From NCBI GenBank assembly GCA_025997215.1, contig BNUH01000061.1:1-15970 (forward strand): a DNA stretch of 15,970 nt, written 5' to 3'. This document shows positions 1,077 to 13,194 of the stretch, piece by piece; the first letter of the stretch is position 1; each line of letters opens with the position of its first letter. The notes beneath the pieces were generated by a model. The model searched no databases, was not told where the DNA came from, and worked only from the letters and a program-made list of their open reading frames with translations. The translations under genes were made by a program, and so were the position numbers. This DNA is from Clostridia bacterium. GTDB lineage: Bacteria; Bacillota_A; Clostridia; Christensenellales; Aristaeellaceae.

Positions 1077-1140
1077 GATGCGGGGGGAATTCCTGCGAAA
1101 TTGGGTTCGCAAACCCCACCGCCTGCGGGGGCTTGGTTCG

Positions 1141-1277
1141 TCCTCTGCGGAGGGGCTTGCCCTCACTGCGGTGAGGGACTTGTTACTTTTCCCGTCCGTG
1201 GGAAAAGTAACCAAAAGGACGGCCAAAAAGGGAGGGCACTGTGCCCTCCCTCTCTGGACTCTCCCTCCTCAATGTTG
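1141..1277 (+). repeat. Dispersed hairpin repeat, copy 1 (inverted partner of 1582-1718)
   Basis: This 137-bp block matches the reverse complement of 1582-1718 except for two substitutions and two single-base indels, so about 97% identity. It is a chain of palindromes: CCTC-TGCG-GAGG, then CCCTCAC-TGCG-GTGAGGG, then TTACTTTTCCC-gtccgt-GGGAAAAGTAA with perfect 11-base arms, then GAGGGCAC-T-GTGCCCTC. A related looser hairpin sits just outside at 1119-1132. It contains no gene of its own. The family looks like one of the non-coding dispersed repeats of gut Firmicutes, but that is from memory and not checked. Confidence 0.85.
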
Positions 1278-1581
1278 CACCTGCTGCAAGAGACCAAACG
1301 GACTACATCCAGAGTAGCACAGTATTGCAGGGTTTTGTCATCATATTGTTTACTAACAAACCTAGATGATCTAAAGCTGCTGGCGTGTATCTGTTATGAT
1401 TACGTATTGGTTACGTACATGCATAGAAGATCCGGAGTTGGCAGCTGGGGATATATTATGATTATATAATGATAATGCCAAGCCTCGCCAATGCGACTAC
1501 CTCGCCGCGAAGCCGCGAGAATCTTGCAATACTGTGCATGTAAATCAATCGGAACGTTGGTCATAGACCAACCAGCGGAGC

Positions 1582-1820: not shown

Positions 1821-2621
1821 TTACCTTGCACACCCGCAGGATGAGTATGGCGGACGCGCGATCGGTGTGCCAGGCTTGGTGGGCGTGTTCACGCTCACGC
1901 AGCCTTCGCCACATAGCGAGGCCGGCGGGAACAGCGGCAGCGAGAAGAACTCGTCGCAGACATTCTCCGCGAACTCTTCGCACGGCGGGATGGAGCAGAA
2001 TCCATAGCTGGGGACGAGGATCTCTACTTCAGCGAGAACCTTCAGCACGACGGTTACACACACGGTCATCTTGAAGGTGTTGTTGCCTATGTAGGAACCG
2101 GATACGCATATAGCGCTGCCCATGGATTCAATTGAATACGGCACGATCGATTCATCGGGAATCGAAAGCAGAACGTCCTTGTGGACGGTCACGACCGCGC
2201 GGCCGATGAACTCGTTGCACCGGGCGTCGGAGAACAGGATGTCGATGGGGACTTCGATCGTCGCGCGCACGCGTGCAAAGCACGGGCGATCGCACAGCCG
2301 CTCGACGGTCAGCGATGTAATCTCGCTCTGGGTGGTGGACGACCGGCAGCTCTCGAACACGATCGGCGCTTCGGGCTGATTGCTCGGCACCGAGTCAACC
2401 GACGTACACTGGTTGCCTTGGCTGGTGCAAACGGTCTTGGGGACGACGGCGAACTGCGTGAACTTTACCTCGATGTTAGTCAGCTGATCCTGCTGAAGGC
2501 AGGAGTCATAAACACGCTTGACTTGAATGCAGACCTTCTCTTGAAGTCCGCTCAAGGCATCGCCAGCAATAACACCAGGGCAGCTGCCCGGGTTGCCATT
2601 CTTGTAGGAATAAAAAGACAT
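1821..2621 (-). CDS. Cys-rich protein of unknown function, possible spore-surface protein
   Basis: This 266-residue protein starts at ATG 2619-2621 behind a near-perfect site, AAGGAGGC (2628-2635), seven bases upstream. It has 18 Cys spread along its length, no signal peptide, no membrane segment and no sortase signal. Beta-strand-like stretches with alternating Val/Ile and Thr (about residues 120-205) suggest a beta-sandwich core. The C-terminal tail is Cys/Pro/Gly-rich and ends in SSCGCAR. The N-terminal VCIQVKRVYDSC segment reminds me of conserved clostridial proteins thought to sit on the spore, but I cannot name a family. It does not carry the C-x11-C unit of the proteins at 4993-10157, yet the Cys content and missing export signal fit the same kind of role. 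It has its own terminator and a 171-base gap behind the preceding gene. Confidence 0.75.
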   Translation of the reverse strand: MSFYSYKNGNPGSCPGVIAGDALSGLQEKVCIQVKRVYDSCLQQDQLTNIEVKFTQFAVVPKTVCTSQGNQCTSVDSVPSNQPEAPIVFESCRSSTTQSEITSLTVERLCDRPCFARVRATIEVPIDILFSDARCNEFIGRAVVTVHKDVLLSIPDESIVPYSIESMGSAICVSGSYIGNNTFKMTVCVTVVLKVLAEVEILVPSYGFCSIPPCEEFAENVCDEFFSLPLFPPASLCGEGCVSVNTPTKPGTPIARPPYSSCGCAR

Positions 2622-2792: not shown

Positions 2793-3284
2793 TTATAAAC
2801 GCTTAGAGACAAGCACGTCGATGGTAAACAAGCGTCCGTAGACGTAATAGCGCACCGTGACGATCCTGGCCGGATCGCCGTCCGTGCGCGATAGCAGTGT
2901 TCCCGACAGCGCGCCCGTCGAGAATGCCGCCAGCGAGAATCCGCGCGGCTCGCCCACCTGCAGCACGTCCAGGCCGACGCTTGGCTGAATCTCCAGCTGG
3001 ATCCATTCGGCTGGGAGGATGCCGTTATTCTTAAGCCGCACCGTGTAAACCAGGAACTCGTACCCATCCGGCGCGGTTAGATCAGCATCCGACAGAATCC
3101 TTCCTGTGAACGAACCCTCCGACAATTTCTGCTGCAAATCAGAGTAAACCGCCGGGGAATCGGCGGCGGGGTGGACTTCGACATACGCGTCCGTAACGGT
3201 CAGCACGGCCGACAGACGCAGGTATAGCGCAGCGCTGCCGGCGAGCGCGGCGATGATCAGCAGTATGACAGCCAAGCGCTTCAT
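2793..3284 (-). CDS. Small membrane-anchored or secreted protein of unknown function
   Basis: This 163-residue protein has a short basic start (MKR) and a hydrophobic segment at about residues 4-23, best read as an uncleaved signal anchor or a signal peptide. The remainder is soluble and beta-rich: an ordered region of about residues 55-160 has the pattern of an immunoglobulin-like or FxLYD-type fold (YEFLVYTVRLKNNG, then IVTVRYYVYGR near the end), seen by eye only. There is no Cys in the exported part. The ATG overlaps the stop of the upstream methyltransferase gene as ATGA (3281-3284), so the two are translationally coupled. The ribosome site GAAGG lies about nine bases ahead, inside the upstream gene. 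No terminator is visible before 2640, so read-through into the Cys-rich gene is possible. Confidence 0.75.
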   Translation of the reverse strand: MKRLAVILLIIAALAGSAALYLRLSAVLTVTDAYVEVHPAADSPAVYSDLQQKLSEGSFTGRILSDADLTAPDGYEFLVYTVRLKNNGILPAEWIQLEIQPSVGLDVLQVGEPRGFSLAAFSTGALSGTLLSRTDGDPARIVTVRYYVYGRLFTIDVLVSKRL

Positions 3285-4537
3285 GAGGCGTGGCCTTCTT
3301 TCTTAATAATGGTGTGTCCGTTGTAAACCCGCAGCGCGGCCTGGAGCGCGTCCGGGTCGGCGTCGGCGAATATCAGTGGGATGTGCACCATGCTCTGCAG
3401 GCGTGGGATTAATGTTGAATAAAACGCCGCTCCGACTGCGCTGTCTAGGTTAAGCTGTAACGCTTGCGCGCCATCGTCCAGCGCGTCAAAGGCTATGTCG
3501 GCGGCGGCGTCCGCCGCTTCGTCAGGATCGCCGCCGAGTAGCGCCCTGAAGCGCGGGTTGGCTTTGGCGTCCAGCGCGTCCGAAATATTCGTTATATTTG
3601 AAAGAATAAATGAGCGCGAGCCGGATGTAATCATGGCGGGTACGTCCGCAGGACGCGGCTGCAGCCGCTTGCCCTCGCTGGCCGCACGCAACGCCTGAAT
3701 GTGCTCGGGTGTGGTGCCGCAGCAGCCGCCGACCATCCATGCGCCCTCGTCGAACAGCGCCGCCGCAAGCGGCGCGTAATCCCCAGGGGATAAGCGGAAT
3801 ACGGCCTGGCCACCCACCATCTCCGGCAAGCCCGCGTTGGGGTTCGCGAATATGGGCAGTCGCGTCGACTGCGCGAGCTCGCGGATGATCCCGGCCATGC
3901 CGTCCGGACCCAGTCCGCAGTTTGCGCCGACGGCGGCCACGCCGAGGCCTTCAAACATCGCGGCTACGCCGGGCGCGTCCAAGCCCGTCAGCAGCCGCCC
4001 ATCATTATTAAACGAGAACGAAACCATCACGGGCAAGTCCGAACAGGATTGAGCCGCCAGCACTGCGGCCTTGGCCTCGTACGCGTCCGTGAACGTTTCT
4101 AATAGAATAAAGTCCGGGCCTTCGGCGACGCCCGCCGCTATCATTCGCGTGTAACCCGCAACCGCTTCCTCAAACGGCAGATCGCCAAACGGTTCCAGCA
4201 GCCGTCCGGACGGGCCGACATCCAGCGCGACACAGCCGTGTCCGGATTCCCGCGCTGCTTCGCGAGCTATGCGCACACCCGCCGCTGTAGCCGCCTCCGC
4301 GTCGTCTCCGACAAACCAATGGTGTGACGTAAACGTATTCGATGTGACGACATCACAGCCCGCGGTTTGGTATGCGAGGTGGACATCCTTTACAGCTTCA
4401 GGATTGTGGATATTCCACAACCCTGGAGGCATACCCTGTGGCAGCCCCCGCAGTTGCAGCTGTGTCCCGAATCCCCCGTCGAAGTAGAGGGGTTTCCCGC
4501 CCAGGTGCGGGATGGCATCCGACAATATCTTTCCCAT
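3281..4537 (-). CDS. Homocysteine S-methyltransferase with truncated folate-domain-like tail
   Basis: The 418-residue protein begins with the zinc-dependent homocysteine S-methyltransferase barrel (about residues 10-295), related to the first module of cobalamin methionine synthase. Family marks are FDGGFGTQLQ near the start, TSNTF, LLETFTD, GANCG and GGCCGT. The zinc ligands would be Cys207, Cys272 and Cys273. Residues about 305-418 (SGSRSFILSNITNISDAL through DDGAQALQLNLD to PLIFADADPDAL) look like the first half of the MetH pterin-binding domain and then stop. There is no cobalamin domain. It may move a methyl group to homocysteine from S-methylmethionine or a corrinoid partner, or serve as one MetH piece; the sequence does not decide. 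It overlaps the next gene by four bases. The methyltransferase call is firm; the substrate is not known. Confidence 0.9.
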   Translation of the reverse strand: MGKILSDAIPHLGGKPLYFDGGFGTQLQLRGLPQGMPPGLWNIHNPEAVKDVHLAYQTAGCDVVTSNTFTSHHWFVGDDAEAATAAGVRIAREAARESGHGCVALDVGPSGRLLEPFGDLPFEEAVAGYTRMIAAGVAEGPDFILLETFTDAYEAKAAVLAAQSCSDLPVMVSFSFNNDGRLLTGLDAPGVAAMFEGLGVAAVGANCGLGPDGMAGIIRELAQSTRLPIFANPNAGLPEMVGGQAVFRLSPGDYAPLAAALFDEGAWMVGGCCGTTPEHIQALRAASEGKRLQPRPADVPAMITSGSRSFILSNITNISDALDAKANPRFRALLGGDPDEAADAAADIAFDALDDGAQALQLNLDSAVGAAFYSTLIPRLQSMVHIPLIFADADPDALQAALRVYNGHTIIKKEGHAS

Positions 4538-4979: not shown

Positions 4980-4992
4980 GGCAGGAGGCGCC

Positions 4993-7900
4993 ATGTTTGA
5001 TCAAAGTAACGGTATGAACTACGGAGCGGGTCCGTTCTATCAGCCGGGGGCCGCGCCGCCATATCAGGGCGCGGATCCTAATAATGGCGCCTGGCAGCAG
5101 CCCGGCGGCGCGTTTGGCGGTATGCCGTACGGGTATGGATACCAGCCGGATCCGGCGGCGTACGGCGGCGCGAATTATTACGGCGATCCCGGTTACGGGG
5201 CCGCCCAGTACGCGCCTGCCGCGAACACGGTGTATGGGAATGCTTACGGCGCTCCGCCGCCTGTAGCGCCTATCCAGCAGCCGCCGCCTGAACAGCAGGA
5301 TCCCTTCGGTCTGGCGGTAGCCTCGCCCGCGCTCGCCAACGGCAACGTTACGTGGTTCCTGCCGGGCAGCCAGCCCAGCTCGGACGACGCCTTCGCGGAC
5401 GTTATGGATCAATACCTGGCCCAGCCGCCGCAGCCTCAGCCGCAGGAACAGCCGCTTCAACAGCAGATTCAATATCAGCCCGTCGAGGCGGCCGCGCTTC
5501 CGCCCGCGCTGCCGATGCCGGTGCCTGTCACGGATTCCATAGCCGCCGATCATTACAACGCGATGGTTGAACGCGGCGCGGATTCGCCATATTACTGCCC
5601 GCCCGGGATGCATTTTGAGCCGGGATTTGGGATCGTGCCTGACACCCAGTATCGCTGCCCGCCGGGGATGCACTTCGAACCGGGATTCGGATGCGTGCCC
5701 GATCAGCATACGGACTGCCCGCCGGGTACCCATTTTGAGCCCGGACGCGGCTGCATGCTCGACGATGATACGGCGAACCCCGGCTGCTGTCCGGCCGGGT
5801 GGCACTTCGTGCTGGGCTACGGGTGTGTGTGGAACGGATCGGATGCGATGGAGGATTGTCCGGCAGGCTGGCATTTTGTGCCGGGCTACGGGTGCGTCTG
5901 GAATCACTCCATGCCCGAACGCCCGCACCGCTGCCCAGAGGGTTGGCATTATGAGCCGGGATACGGCTGCGTAGTCTCGCCAGCCGCGCCCAAGGAGCAT
6001 CCCTGCCCGTCGGGTCAATACTACAACACCGAGTTGGAGATGTGCGTGCTCGACACCTGTCCGGAGTCGATGCACTATGAACCGAGCATCGGCAGCTGCG
6101 TGTGGGGCGCGCCGTGCAAGCCTGGTTATCATTATGAATCCGGCCAGGGCTGCGTGCCCGGCCCGGCGCATCCGACCTGCCCGCCCGATTCCCACTTCGT
6201 CGAGGGCATCGGCTGTGTAATGGATCACGAGTACGGCGAGGATTGTCCGGATGGATTCCACTTTGAACCGGGATACGGCTGCGTATTCGGGCCGGATGAA
6301 TGCCCGGAGAATAGTTACTATGTGGCGGGCATCGGCTGCGTGTGGGGCCCGAGCAACCTGCCCGAGTGCACCGACTGTCCCGACGGGATGCGTTATCTGC
6401 CCGGCATCGGCTGCGTGTGCCAGGATCTGTACTGCAAGGAAGGGTCGCGCTTCCAGCCCGGCGTAGGTTGCATCGCCGAGGAAGGCACGCCGGGGATTGT
6501 CTGCCCCGATGGTTGCACGTATGTCGCTGGTATAGGATGCGTTCGCGGCGAGCGCGAGCCGGCCGATGAATGCGTCCCTGGTACTCACCTGGTGCCAGGC
6601 GTGGGCTGTGTCGCGGATGGCTGCGACTGCCCCGAGGGTTCGCATTACATACAAGGCATAGGCTGTGTCGGCGAGGACGCCGAGTGTCCGCTGGGTTCAT
6701 ACTACGTCGCGGCAATTGGCTGCTTGGTTGGGCCGGATGTCTGCGAGTGCGACGAAGGGCCGACTGGATCGCATCGAGTGCCGGGCGTGGGTTGGGTTTA
6801 CGATGATATCCCCATTGAACTGCTGCCCCAGGAGCCTCCAGTAGATCCAGGCGAGCCAGGCGAGCCAGGCGAACCAGGTGGACCGACTGGCCCCACCATT
6901 CCGATCGAACCGACTGAACCTGATGTCGATATAGAGGATCTATTCACATACCTGGATGGCGTCGGTTACGTCTACAATGACGCCGAGTGTCCGCCTTCAT
7001 TCCACTATGTGGCGGGCGTGGGCTGCGTCTACGGCCCGGATATGGCGACGATCATCTGCGCGGATGGCATGCGTTACTCGCCGGGCATCGGTTGTCTGGA
7101 TGATCTCGGGCCGACCCAATGCCCCAACGGTTCCGTATACATGGCCGAGATAGGCTGCATATGCGCCGAGGCTGAATGCCCGGATGGAATGTTCTACGTG
7201 CCCGGCATCGGCTGCGTGTGCGGCGTGCCGTCGCTCGAGGGTGGCCAGTGCCCGCCAGGTTCGCACATGACGCCTGGGGTAGGGTGCGTCTACGACGCCG
7301 AGACCTGCCCGACGGGATTCCGGTATATGCCGGGCGTCGGCTGTGTAATGGGCGGCGGGTTCATGCCGGATGATACAGTGTTCATACCGGGCGTGGGCAG
7401 CGTTTACAAACCCAGCGGATCCGATACGCCCGCCTGCCCGCCGGGATCATACTTCATGCCGGGCGTGGGATGCGTGCTGGGTTCCGGGCCGAACTGTCCG
7501 ACGACGCCCTGCCCGCCGGGTTCGCACTTCGTCTCCGGCGTAGGCTGTGTAATGAATGGCGGTTCACGCCTGGCTATGTCCGCACAGCCATGTCCGCCGG
7601 GCTCCCAATATCAGCCGGGTTATGGATGCGTAATGCCCGCCATGCCCTGCGGCCCATACGATAACCCCTGCCCGATGGGTTGGCGTTATGTGTCCGGCAT
7701 AGGATGCGTGCTGGATAACTGCGGCCGAGATGAAGAGACCTGCTGCGTCAACCCGAACGGCCCGACATGGGGCACTGGAGGCGGCGGAGGTGGATACGGC
7801 GGCGGCGGTACGGTCAACATCAATGTAAACGTCAACTGTTCCGGCGGCGGCGGTTATCCAACCGGCACCTGGCCAACCGGACCATGGCCGACATACTGCA

Positions 7901-8535
7901 CGGGGCCCAGCTGTCCGACGGGACCATGGCCACCGTACCCGCCGCACCCATGCCCGTGTAATACTATCCCGATCCCGATTCCGATTCCATGGCCGATGCC
8001 GATGCCGATGCCGGGCGGCTGCTGCGATCCATGTCCGCCGCCGTTCCCGCCACCACCATTCCCGCCGCCGTGTCCGCCGCAATGCCCGCCGGGTTCGACT
8101 TATGTACCGCCGATGGGATGCGTCGGGTTTACCGGATGCGCGTGTCCGCCGGGTTCGCATTACGATCCGAAGTTGTGCCAATGCGTGGGTGATATAATCG
8201 TTCAGCCGTGCAAAATTTGCGGATGCCATCCTTGCTGCTGTCCGCATGATCACGGGCCTAAGCCGCCCGGCGGTGGGTGCCCGCCGCCGCCAGGTTCAGG
8301 TCATGGTTCTGGATGCGGGCCGTGTCCGCCCGGTTCACACTATGACCCCGCGTTCGGGGGCTGTGTCGGGGATGTTGTGAATCCCTGCGGCCCCGCGCCG
8401 CCATTCGGCCCGCGCGCGCCCGACACGTTTGCAGACGCTTTGCAGGATTACAGCGGCAGTTCTTATAACATAACTAATGATGCCAAAGCGAACGGCGTTC
8501 GCTATTCTGCTGAACCAGGAGGGGTAACGTCATGA
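4993..8535 (+). CDS. Giant Cys/Pro/Gly repeat protein (about 32 C-x11-C units), putative coat structural protein
   Basis: I take the ATG at 4993 (1,180 residues), with AGGAGG at 4983-4988; an in-frame GTG at 4963 lacks a ribosome site. Residues 1-201 are Gly/Tyr/Pro/Gln-rich with many Tyr. From residue 202 run units of consensus C-P-x-G-x-[HRY]-[FY]-x-P-G-x-G-C-V, Cys at positions 1 and 13, with linkers of 3-12 residues. About 19 units lead to a short collagen-like GEPGEPGEPGG segment (near 620-634), then about ten more (666-905). A Gly- and Trp/Pro-rich zone follows, with alternating IP and MP dipeptides (992-1007), then three last units with a Cys/His cluster (1073-1087). There is no signal peptide, membrane span or LPxTG. 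I infer an intracellularly made, disulfide- and perhaps dityrosine-linked coat component; no named family is recognised. It is coupled to the next gene through ATGA. Confidence 0.85.
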   Translation: MFDQSNGMNYGAGPFYQPGAAPPYQGADPNNGAWQQPGGAFGGMPYGYGYQPDPAAYGGANYYGDPGYGAAQYAPAANTVYGNAYGAPPPVAPIQQPPPEQQDPFGLAVASPALANGNVTWFLPGSQPSSDDAFADVMDQYLAQPPQPQPQEQPLQQQIQYQPVEAAALPPALPMPVPVTDSIAADHYNAMVERGADSPYYCPPGMHFEPGFGIVPDTQYRCPPGMHFEPGFGCVPDQHTDCPPGTHFEPGRGCMLDDDTANPGCCPAGWHFVLGYGCVWNGSDAMEDCPAGWHFVPGYGCVWNHSMPERPHRCPEGWHYEPGYGCVVSPAAPKEHPCPSGQYYNTELEMCVLDTCPESMHYEPSIGSCVWGAPCKPGYHYESGQGCVPGPAHPTCPPDSHFVEGIGCVMDHEYGEDCPDGFHFEPGYGCVFGPDECPENSYYVAGIGCVWGPSNLPECTDCPDGMRYLPGIGCVCQDLYCKEGSRFQPGVGCIAEEGTPGIVCPDGCTYVAGIGCVRGEREPADECVPGTHLVPGVGCVADGCDCPEGSHYIQGIGCVGEDAECPLGSYYVAAIGCLVGPDVCECDEGPTGSHRVPGVGWVYDDIPIELLPQEPPVDPGEPGEPGEPGGPTGPTIPIEPTEPDVDIEDLFTYLDGVGYVYNDAECPPSFHYVAGVGCVYGPDMATIICADGMRYSPGIGCLDDLGPTQCPNGSVYMAEIGCICAEAECPDGMFYVPGIGCVCGVPSLEGGQCPPGSHMTPGVGCVYDAETCPTGFRYMPGVGCVMGGGFMPDDTVFIPGVGSVYKPSGSDTPACPPGSYFMPGVGCVLGSGPNCPTTPCPPGSHFVSGVGCVMNGGSRLAMSAQPCPPGSQYQPGYGCVMPAMPCGPYDNPCPMGWRYVSGIGCVLDNCGRDEETCCVNPNGPTWGTGGGGGGYGGGGTVNINVNVNCSGGGGYPTGTWPTGPWPTYCTGPSCPTGPWPPYPPHPCPCNTIPIPIPIPWPMPMPMPGGCCDPCPPPFPPPPFPPPCPPQCPPGSTYVPPMGCVGFTGCACPPGSHYDPKLCQCVGDIIVQPCKICGCHPCCCPHDHGPKPPGGGCPPPPGSGHGSGCGPCPPGSHYDPAFGGCVGDVVNPCGPAPPFGPRAPDTFADALQDYSGSSYNITNDAKANGVRYSAEPGGVTS
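8517..8535 (+). promoter_or_regulatory. Coupled ribosome site and ATGA overlap between the two repeat-protein genes
   Basis: AGGAGGGG (8517-8524) lies within the last codons of the first gene, seven bases before the ATG at 8532. That ATG overlaps the TGA stop (8533-8535) as ATGA. This arrangement normally gives translational coupling, so the two proteins should be made together in a fixed ratio. It also confirms the start of the second gene. Confidence 0.85.
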
Positions 8536-10157
8536 CTCCCATGAACCCCGTAGGATACCCATACCAGTACTGTCCGGGCGGCTTCCAACAGCCGTATTGC
8601 CCGAGCGGGACACAATTCGTGTGGGGGATTGGCTGCGTACCCGTGGGGCCAGGCACGGCCCCCGCGCCCTGTCCTGGCACGCCGCCGCCCCCTTGCCCGC
8701 CTGAACCCTGCCCGACCATACCGGACTGCGGCTGGACATTCGAATTCCCATGCCCGGACGGTATGCATTATGAGAATGGCTGCTGCGTACCTGATCCGCC
8801 GCAACCGTGTCCTCCGCCGCCCTGTCCCCCGCCGGATGATCCCTGCTGCTGCCCGCCGGGTACGCACTTGGTGCCGGGCGTAGGCTGCGTGGTGGATCCC
8901 ACCTGCCCGCAGGGTATGCATTATGAACCGGGCGTGGGCTGCGTATACGGGCCTGTCTGTCCGCCCGGAACGAAGTATGACAGCGACCGCGGATGTGTGG
9001 ATGAACACGGCTGTCCGATTGGAACCCACTTTGTCCATGGTTATGGCTGTGTGCAGGATCCCGTCTGCCCGGATGGTTATCATTATGAATGCGGCATCGG
9101 CTGCGTATCCGGTTCGCAATGCCCGCCCGGGAAGCACTTCGAGTATGGGCTGGGATGTGTGAACGGTCCGCCGTGCGAACCGGGGATGTATTACGCGCCG
9201 GGGCTGGGCTGCGTGACCGCGCCGACCTGCCCGCCGGGTACTGTATACGACCATTGGCGCGGGTGCGTTGTGAATAGTGACTGCCGCAAGGGTACCCATT
9301 ATGTGCCTGGCTATGGGTGCGTGCTGGATAGTGAACCGCAATGCCCCGAGGGTTCCAAATATTTCCCGGGATACGGCTGTCTGCCCGACCCGGATTACGA
9401 TCCATGTCCGCCGCCGCCGCCACCTGCTCCGCCGCCTCTGCCGTGCGGAACGTGTCCGCCTTGCTCGCCGCCTAACCCCGCGCCGCCGTATCCGCCGCCG
9501 CCGTATCCGCACGGCCATGATCGGCATGATCATCACGGTCGACATAATCGGCATGCCGGGTATGTTGAGCAGACTGGTTACGAGAATGTTGACCAGATCG
9601 TCGATTATCCCGTTAATCCGCCGAATCCATGGCATCCGCATACGCCGCCGCATGAGTACACGCCGCCGTGTCCGCCGCCTCCGCAGCCCATGCCGCCGAT
9701 CTATCCGCCGTACTGCGCAAACTGCGGATGCAAGAGGCCCTGTTCTTGCGGCAGGCCACCGGAAGCGAGACCGTGTCCGCACTGTCAGCAATCGCCTTGC
9801 GCGTGCCATCGATACTACGAGCGCCGCGATTGTTATCCAGTACCAACACCACCGACACCGGTACCGCCGGAACCGCTGCCGCTGCCACCGCCGCCGCCAT
9901 ACGAACGCCCATACGACAAACCCTGCCGTTGTCAAGAGCGCGGCGAACCCTGCCGCTGCCGTGAGCGCGGCCTGCCGTGCCAATGCTCGCTGCATCATGG
10001 CGACCGCGATCCATCGTGCGGTGAGCTGCCCACGCGCCGCAGTGTCCCAATTCCCATGGAAGCCACCGCCAACGGGGGCAGCAGCGTACAGCTTCAACGC
10101 TGGGATAAGAAGAAACCCTGGTGCAGAACGGGTTGCGAGAGGATTGACTGTCGTTAA
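8532..10157 (+). CDS. Second Cys/Pro/Gly repeat protein (about 12 C-x11-C units) with His-rich and CxC tail
   Basis: This 541-residue partner of the 4993 protein has no signal peptide and starts MTPMNPVGYPYQYC. After two units in a Pro/Cys-rich lead-in (residues 23-106), the array from Cys107 to about residue 291 is strictly regular: eight successive units of exactly 18 residues, then two of about 20. Within a unit, Cys are at positions 1 and 13 (for example CPPGTHLVPGVGCV). A poly-Pro segment follows, then a His-rich stretch PHGHDRHDHHGRHNRH (about 325-342) able to bind metal. A cluster of CxC and CxxC motifs comes next (395-434), and a 9-residue basic repeat CRCQERGEP/CRCRERGLP/CQC (465-485). 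The end is WCRTGCERIDCR. It is likely a co-assembling coat protein whose tail could bind metal or crosslink. Function is inferred from composition and context only. Confidence 0.85.
   Translation: MTPMNPVGYPYQYCPGGFQQPYCPSGTQFVWGIGCVPVGPGTAPAPCPGTPPPPCPPEPCPTIPDCGWTFEFPCPDGMHYENGCCVPDPPQPCPPPPCPPPDDPCCCPPGTHLVPGVGCVVDPTCPQGMHYEPGVGCVYGPVCPPGTKYDSDRGCVDEHGCPIGTHFVHGYGCVQDPVCPDGYHYECGIGCVSGSQCPPGKHFEYGLGCVNGPPCEPGMYYAPGLGCVTAPTCPPGTVYDHWRGCVVNSDCRKGTHYVPGYGCVLDSEPQCPEGSKYFPGYGCLPDPDYDPCPPPPPPAPPPLPCGTCPPCSPPNPAPPYPPPPYPHGHDRHDHHGRHNRHAGYVEQTGYENVDQIVDYPVNPPNPWHPHTPPHEYTPPCPPPPQPMPPIYPPYCANCGCKRPCSCGRPPEARPCPHCQQSPCACHRYYERRDCYPVPTPPTPVPPEPLPLPPPPPYERPYDKPCRCQERGEPCRCRERGLPCQCSLHHGDRDPSCGELPTRRSVPIPMEATANGGSSVQLQRWDKKKPWCRTGCERIDCR
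8850..9404 (+). repeat. 54-bp-period coding repeat array (18-residue units)
   Basis: Unit starts fall at 8850, 8904 and then every 54 bases to 9282, followed by a longer unit before the last one at 9342. The protein pattern is conserved but the DNA is not: TGC/TGT and Gly/Pro third positions vary freely between units. That means old duplications held in place by selection on the protein, rather than recent slippage. Confidence 0.8.
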
Positions 10158-13060: not shown

Positions 13061-13070
13061 GCTGCGCACC
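13046..13070 (+). terminator. Stem at the stop codon of the beta-helix gene
   Basis: GGTGCGC (13046-13052) pairs with GCGCACC (13064-13070), extended inward by GGCC with GGCT around a GTA loop, for an 11-bp stem. It covers the TAG stop (13058-13060). No U tract follows (ATTCGTC), so it may be a factor-dependent end or an mRNA-stabilising structure instead of a true intrinsic terminator. Confidence 0.45.
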
Positions 13071-13110
13071 ATTCGTCAAATTGGTAATTTATGGGATAGT
13101 GGAAATACCG

Positions 13111-13140
13111 TTCGCATCCACCCGCAGTCTGTGATATAAT
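13111..13140 (+). promoter_or_regulatory. Upstream promoter (P1) of the SH3b/fucosyltransferase operon
   Basis: A perfect TATAAT (13135-13140) is preceded by TGA, making an extended -10. A moderate -35, TTCGCA (13111-13116), lies 18 bases ahead. Transcripts would start near 13147. The extended -10 could compensate for the poor -35. Confidence 0.5.
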
Positions 13141-13151
13141 GTCGACAGCGA

Positions 13152-13180
13152 TTGACATATAATGAATAATTTTGCATAAT
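13152..13180 (+). promoter_or_regulatory. Main sigma-A promoter (P2) of the SH3b/fucosyltransferase operon
   Basis: A perfect -35 TTGACA (13152-13157) and CATAAT (13175-13180) are exactly 17 bases apart. The start point would be near 13187, only about eight bases before the first ATG at 13195. That favours translation from the GTG at 13210 or the ATG at 13258, or a very short leader when P2 is used. Confidence 0.8.
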
Positions 13181-13194
13181 CGGGTAATGCTGGA

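What the first reader, a model, noticed from the sequence alone, without database searches (positions are those of the whole stretch)
4993..10157. Two coupled genes for a C-x11-C repeat coat-like system
Two adjacent, translationally coupled genes encode about 44 copies of a unit with consensus C-P-x-G-x-[HRY]-[FY]-x-P-G-x-G-C-V, with Cys at positions 1 and 13. Neither protein has a signal peptide, membrane segment or wall anchor, which is unusual for proteins so rich in Cys. That combination is known for spore coat proteins, made in the mother cell and oxidised later. The unit also recalls, as an analogy only, the regularly spaced Cys repeats of protozoan oocyst wall proteins. I recognise no named bacterial family.
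Basis: partly seen in the sequence, partly recalled or inferred. Interest (0 to 1): 0.85.

Follow-up and report, generated by a model that had tools for sequence, protein, structure and literature searches.

The report
Paired cysteine-hairpin repeat structural proteins
Two overlapping bacterial genes encode cysteine-rich repeat proteins without an export signal that look like parts of a cross-linked protective layer, possibly of a spore, though nothing yet shows that the bacterium makes spores.

Summary
Two + strand genes, 4993-8535 (1180 aa, 95 Cys) and 8532-10157 (541 aa, 60 Cys), overlap by ATGA and carry 44 counted copies of C-P-x-G-x-[HRY]-[FY]-x-P-G-x-G-C-V. Residue shuffles give almost none. 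Codon positions 1 and 2 are conserved between units (66-67%) and position 3 is not (40%), so the repeat is old and kept as protein. No hydrophobic segment, anchor motif or family hit was found. AlphaFold2, at low confidence, draws one beta-hairpin per unit.

Best reading: a two-protein, disulfide-cross-linkable structural layer, most plausibly of a spore. It would work like CdeC/CdeM or CsxA without belonging to their families. This is inferred: the host is unidentified, no sporulation-type promoter was seen, and no relative in a spore former was found. The unit shape is not diagnostic of coats. Looser CPxG...C repeats occur in a PEP-CTERM protein (a genome from the phylum of an Asaia-named MAG), an FGE-sulfatase-domain protein and a Geoalkalibacter plasmid frame.

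The parts
4993..8535 (+). gene 1 (P0001), 1180 aa, 95 Cys, 32 of the 44 counted units
8532..10157 (+). gene 2 (P0002), 541 aa, 60 Cys, 12 of the 44 counted units
8532..8535 (+). ATGA overlap: start of gene 2 over stop of gene 1
4983..4988 (+). SD-like AGGAGG, 4 nt before the ATG of gene 1
   Evidence: read from sequence
8517..8522 (+). SD-like AGGAGG, 9 nt before the ATG of gene 2
   Evidence: read from sequence
4993..5595 (+). N-terminal tail of P0001 (residues 1-201) ahead of the first counted unit, with a Gly/Pro/Tyr/Gln-rich start and no Cys before residue 202
   Evidence: read from sequence
5596..7710 (+). main unit array of P0001 (residues 202-906), spacings 18-27, interrupted between residues 603 and 665
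8083..8367 (+). three C-terminal units of P0001 (residues 1031, 1051, 1111); the last two are C-x12-C variants
8598..8639 (+). first, isolated unit of P0002 (residue 23)
8850..9383 (+). main unit array of P0002 (residues 107-284), ten units, period 18
8209..8253 (+). second Cys motif of P0001 (residues 1073-1087), C-x2-C-G-C-x2-C-C-C
9714..9761 (+). matching second Cys motif of P0002 (residues 395-410), C-x2-C-G-C-x3-C-x-C

Best explanation
The two genes make two paralogous structural proteins, made in the cytosol from one message and at linked rates. Shown: the repeat, its conservation as protein, the overlap, the lack of a hydrophobic segment. Inferred: each 14-residue unit is a small beta-hairpin (strand around [HRY]-[FY], P-G-x-G turn, strand G-C-V) with Cys 1 and Cys 13 at its two ends, joined by linkers that are regular in protein 2 and variable in protein 1. 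The proteins stay reduced when made, then assemble and are oxidised into a cross-linked insoluble layer, with disulfides within units and between chains and perhaps Tyr-based cross-links through the Tyr-rich tail. The most plausible place is the coat or exosporium of a spore, made in the mother cell, where no export signal is needed.
For: 44 units far above shuffles, conserved at codon positions 1 and 2 only. ATGA overlap with an SD-like site for each gene. The two proteins are paralogous over the repeats, 39% over 207 aa, and share a second Cys motif. Hairpin in 10 of 10 units (pLDDT 54) and 3 of 3 units (pLDDT 69), both low confidence. Among windows with at least 7 of 8 non-Cys positions kept, the three with a missing Cys lack both (residues 589, 791) or Cys 13 alone (202), a hint that the two Cys pair (few cases). 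No hydrophobic segment, anchor motif or family. Cys density like CdeC and CdeM. The CsxA paper proposes that Cys-rich spore proteins of unrelated sequence assemble this way inside the mother cell (PMC7333573, section 17 read). A third Cys-rich protein without family (266 aa, 18 Cys) lies 2.4 kb away on the other strand.
Against: Host unidentified, so spore formation is not shown. No SigE- or SigK-like site upstream of gene 1; the one SigF/G-like match is at chance level. No sporulation family recognised in the eight neighbouring frames scanned. Similar looser repeats occur in proteins with a PEP-CTERM signal or a hydrophobic N-terminus. No relative found in any spore former, though Bacillota genomes could not be searched here. 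No structural match (best Foldseek E 1.0).
Confidence: 0.45

Rival explanations
1. A cell-surface, sheath or matrix protein pair of a non-sporulating state, leaving the cell by lysis or a route without a classical signal; the repeats act as extended adhesive or spacer arms.
For: The nearest repeats found are in proteins that look exported: a PEP-CTERM protein and P0003, an FGE-sulfatase-domain protein with a hydrophobic N-terminus. Genes further along the same strand (beta-helix protein, SH3-domain protein) look like envelope proteins.
Against: No hydrophobic segment or anchor motif in either protein, while those relatives have one. The neighbouring envelope-type genes begin nearly 900 bases downstream, beyond a convergent thuA gene.
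Confidence: 0.25
2. A cytosolic thiol- and metal-rich store: the Cys and the frequent His at unit position 6 bind metal or buffer redox state.
For: His at position 6 in 25 of 44 units and Cys at both ends of most; a His-rich stretch in P0002.
Against: Each unit spaces its Cys by 11 residues rather than as C-x2-C knuckles; gly/pro-rich hairpin repeats and Pro/Tyr-rich tails suit structure better (inference). No metal-binding family hit.
Confidence: 0.1
3. A structural protein pair of a phage or other mobile element.
For: P0004, a weak hit, is an unnamed protein whose start resembles phage structural proteins to my eye only; a Geoalkalibacter plasmid carries a looser repeat near a traG gene.
Against: No PHROG for P0001 or P0002; no match to P0001 in phages or plasmids; the 16 viral contigs with a unit-like match have one exact match each; the neighbours with families are metabolic or envelope genes.
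Confidence: 0.05

Closest known systems
CdeC and CdeM, Clostridioides difficile exosporium Cys-rich proteins (PMC6101409, PMC7677010; passages seen)
   Same: Cys density (9% and 8.7% against 8.1% and 11.1%), short repeats, no conserved domain, two Cys-rich proteins acting in one layer
   Different: CdeC is 405 aa and CdeM 161 aa; CdeC repeats are NPC and CCRQGKGK, not a CPxG...PGxGC hairpin unit. No sequence comparison was run.
CsxA, Clostridium sporogenes exosporium lattice protein (PMC7333573; passages and section 17 seen)
   Same: Cys-rich, proposed to assemble in the mother cell into a disulfide-linked layer
   Different: 25 Cys in one lattice protein; the passages seen describe no tandem unit. 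No sequence comparison was run.
COWP oocyst wall proteins of Cryptosporidium and coccidia (PMC2867935, PMC4514997; passages seen)
   Same: Tandem Cys repeats with Cys 10-12 residues apart, proposed to stiffen a resistant wall by disulfides
   Different: Signal peptides; a 65-residue domain with six Cys; eukaryotic. Analogy only.
CBM_14 / peritrophin-A-like CPxG...C repeats, as in P0003
   Same: C-P-x-G-x-x-[FY] followed by a Cys; profile A3 scores P0003 at 49 bits, keep-Cys shuffles give nothing; hhalign probability 92%. P0001 has four C-x12-C variants of this form.
   Different: P0003 has 18 C-x12-C units and 1 C-x11-C by the same patterns, an FGE-sulfatase domain and a hydrophobic N-terminus. 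The window proteins do not reach the CBM_14 cut-off.
PEP-CTERM repeat protein in L020
   Same: Run of CPxGxxxDxxGxC units, also C-x11-C in several; profile A3 31.7 bits
   Different: D-x-x-G in place of P-G-x-G; carries a PEP-CTERM sorting signal over cut-off

Membership tests
Cys-rich self-assembling spore coat/exosporium proteins (a functional kind: CdeC, CdeM, CsxA, CotY, ExsY) | High Cys content | tested here: met
   8.1% and 11.1% against 9% and 8.7% for CdeC and CdeM
Cys-rich self-assembling spore coat/exosporium proteins (a functional kind: CdeC, CdeM, CsxA, CotY, ExsY) | No classical export signal | tested here: met
   No hydrophobic segment; no dedicated signal-peptide predictor was available. 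That the known ones lack a signal is inferred from their mother-cell assembly.
Cys-rich self-assembling spore coat/exosporium proteins (a functional kind: CdeC, CdeM, CsxA, CotY, ExsY) | Host forms spores | tested here: inconclusive
   No genome held. Plasmid-borne best matches for two neighbours include Bacillota, a weak lead.
Cys-rich self-assembling spore coat/exosporium proteins (a functional kind: CdeC, CdeM, CsxA, CotY, ExsY) | Expression under mother-cell sigma factors | tested here: inconclusive
   No SigE- or SigK-like site within 455 nt upstream of gene 1, by patterns recalled from B. subtilis
Cys-rich self-assembling spore coat/exosporium proteins (a functional kind: CdeC, CdeM, CsxA, CotY, ExsY) | Disulfide-dependent self-assembly; presence in spores | not testable with these tools
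   needs protein work
CdeC, CdeM, CsxA or CotY sequence families | Sequence similarity | tested here: not met
   No Pfam or NCBIfam family over cut-off for P0001 or P0002. Which of these proteins have a model there was not checked, and no direct comparison was run.
COWP oocyst wall proteins | Signal peptide | tested here: not met
   against
COWP oocyst wall proteins | 65-residue type I domain with six Cys 10-12 apart | tested here: not met
   two-Cys unit with period 18-27,
CBM_14 (PF01607) | Score over the curated cut-off | tested here: not met
   P0001 13.9 bits against 22.1; P0002 no match at E <= 1
PEP-CTERM surface proteins / NF047412 | Sorting signal or domain over cut-off | tested here: not met
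   no match in P0001 or P0002 at E <= 1; met by L020

The most novel reading that the evidence does not exclude
A previously undescribed two-component protective shell: a pair of translationally coupled proteins made of tandem disulfide beta-hairpins, oxidised after assembly around a spore, a bacterial counterpart reached independently to the Cys-repeat walls of protozoan oocysts.
Probability: 0.35. Interest if true: 0.75.

Novelty: new variant of a known kind. Interest (0 to 1): 0.5.

Why it matters
If the reading is right, it adds a coat or exosporium building block with a clear repeating unit, so that disulfide hairpin geometry, period and two-protein stoichiometry become directly testable. 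The CsxA authors propose that many Cys-rich spore proteins of unrelated sequence share one assembly strategy; this would be a strongly periodic case. If the reading is wrong, a 44-unit Cys repeat pair without an export signal still needs an explanation of how its thiols are kept or used.

Tried and rejected
Protein searches: P0002 whole, 7978 candidates, none at E <= 1e-5; P0001 residues 200-910, 2 of 4827 candidates at E <= 1; P0002 residues 100-290, 69 candidates, none at E <= 1. The first was probably swamped by Pro-rich words. All need shared 5-residue words and exclude proteins outside 0.55-1.75 of the query length, so distant relatives can be missed.

Genome scan lost: the unit pattern had one N too few. 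It matched 0 times in the window, and its single hit (L001, an Asaia-named MAG contig) has no unit repeat.

Viral contigs: 16 stretches with one exact match each. Of the 17 loci examined, L002, L016 and L007 have frames with 4-6 C-x11-C windows; on sight L002 is Cys-rich with one matching unit, L016 looks like a zinc-finger type protein and L007 low complexity, none followed further. The search for related loci with P0001 and with the 266-aa neighbour gave nothing.

Plasmids and phages: P0001 none; P0002 one weak plasmid match, E 7e-3, a Geoalkalibacter frame with CPxG...C repeats and no Pfam family over cut-off.

398 genomes of the phylum of G001: P0001 0 of 398 (the tool warns that an empty answer shows nothing without a known positive); profile A1 2 of 398: L020/L021, one PEP-CTERM protein, and L019, in whose longest-scoring frame I saw no repeat. 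These genomes cannot answer the spore-former question.

PDB: no match to P0001; A1 best E 0.46; Foldseek best E 1.0, none at 1e-3, on a low-confidence model. PADLOC none. PHROGs none for P0001 and P0002. Rfam none. No tRNA.

Cys co-loss: Fisher p 6e-5 (50 windows) and 0.006 (43 windows), but both counts include overlapping, shifted and chance windows, so I use only the three well-formed cases. Alignment A2 came out of register and was dropped for A3.

Literature: eight searches; no paper in their listings was seen to describe this unit. Most listed papers were seen as listings only.
Full report
Observation. P0001 has 95 Cys (8.1%), P0002 60 (11.1%). I count 44 units, 32 + 12; Cys 1 in 42 and Cys 13 in 37 of 44. 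Shuffles almost never produce such windows. Between units, codon positions 1, 2 and 3 agree at 0.661, 0.671 and 0.398: the conserved thing is the protein in the + frame, and the copies are not recent DNA duplications. In the main array of P0002 eight of nine spacings are exactly 18; in P0001 they run from 18 to 27.

Surroundings. On the other strand upstream lie a frame with a class-II glutamine amidotransferase domain (3-1226, open at the window edge; glutamate synthase-like by the plasmid matches), a 266-aa Cys-rich protein of no family (1821-2621, 18 Cys), a 163-aa frame of no family and a homocysteine S-methyltransferase domain protein (3281-4537). Downstream are a convergent ThuA protein, then on the + strand a beta-helix protein, an SH3-domain protein and a family 11 glycosyltransferase. 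None of these is a recognised sporulation protein. Plasmid matches for two neighbours include Bacillota: Peptoclostridium 38% for the methyltransferase and Paenibacillus 52% for the glutamate synthase-like frame, but Rhizobium also ranks high in the latter. The host stays unidentified; no genome is held, and the window or a 40-base stretch of it has no match in plasmids, phages or viral contigs.

Structure. AlphaFold2 on ten units (A1, pLDDT 54.4, pTM 0.28) and on three units (A3, pLDDT 68.8, pTM 0.34) gives one two-stranded hairpin per unit in every unit: a strand at [HRY]-[FY], a turn at P-G-x-G, a strand at G-C-V. Confidence is low, the alignments are made of the proteins' own repeats, and no solved structure matches significantly. 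Among well-formed units the few that lack a Cys lack both (residues 589, 791) or Cys 13 only (202): a hint, no more, that the pair bonds within the unit.

Relatives. Three protein searches gave only P0003 (E 2.6e-7, 27% identity) and P0004 (E 2.4e-6, 31%). P0003 carries an FGE-sulfatase domain, a hydrophobic N-terminus and 18 C-x12-C units by the pattern used. A profile of three units scores P0003 49, P0004 38 and the PEP-CTERM protein of L020 32 bits, and none of 15 shuffles that keep Cys in place. So there is a loose, wider class of CPxG...C repeats, in part in exported proteins and in at least one genome from the phylum of an Asaia-named MAG (Pseudomonadota by that name; the tool does not state the group). 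That class does not sporulate (general knowledge), so the unit shape by itself does not argue for a coat. What sets the window pair apart is the P-G-x-G-C core, the number of units, the coupling, and the lack of any export feature. P0001 itself holds four C-x12-C variants, which links the two forms.

How it most likely works. Cytosolic synthesis of two paralogous proteins (39% over 207 aa) from one message; folding into strings of hairpins; assembly; oxidation to a cross-linked layer. The Cys density and the lack of an export signal match proteins known to do this around spores, for which assembly inside the mother cell has been proposed (PMC7333573, section 17; PMC6101409, passages; PMC7677010, passages). 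The spore step is the weakest: recalled SigE and SigK patterns are absent upstream of gene 1, although such patterns may not fit this organism. I hold it at 0.45.

Known kinds. It works like the Cys-rich spore surface proteins; membership in any of their sequence families is not supported. It is not a COWP (no signal peptide, different repeat) and does not reach the CBM_14 cut-off. I call it a new variant of a known kind.

Limits. The 398 genomes that could be searched lie in the wrong phylum for the question.

Noticed in passing
window 1821-2621 (-): A 266-aa protein with 18 Cys (6.8%), no hit in Pfam, NCBIfam or PADLOC, one chance-level PHROG (E 0.45), no match in plasmids, PDB or viral contigs. 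It could belong to the same layer.
   Followed up: partly
window 1128-1286 and 1573-1731: A long inverted repeat pair (arms of 86, 48 and 30 nt at 95, 92 and 87% complementarity, 286 nt between the inner arms), like a pair of small mobile or REP-type elements; no match to one arm in plasmids or phages.
   Followed up: partly
window 6850-6885 (P0001 residues 620-631): A short collagen-like run, (G-E-P)x3 then G-G-P, in the linker between two runs of units.
   Followed up: no
window 8209-8253 and 9714-9761: A second Cys motif, C-x2-C-G-C..., shared by the C-terminal parts of both proteins.
   Followed up: no
L020 1378-3084 (-): PEP-CTERM protein with a run of CPxGxxxDxxGxC units; also over the cut-off of NF047412. 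P0004 passes the same NF047412 cut-off.
   Followed up: partly
L018 3701-4799 (Geoalkalibacter plasmid pGSUB1): A frame with CPxG...C repeats in a stretch without a listed gene, downstream of a traG-type gene and a TnpB gene.
   Followed up: partly
window 8532-10157, antisense: One antisense frame of gene 2 has no stop at all; codon-position conservation points to the + frame.
   Followed up: yes
window 13061-13194: A SigE-like match with 2 mismatches upstream of the SH3-domain gene (0.24 expected in shuffles) and two overlapping sigma-70-like sites.
   Followed up: no
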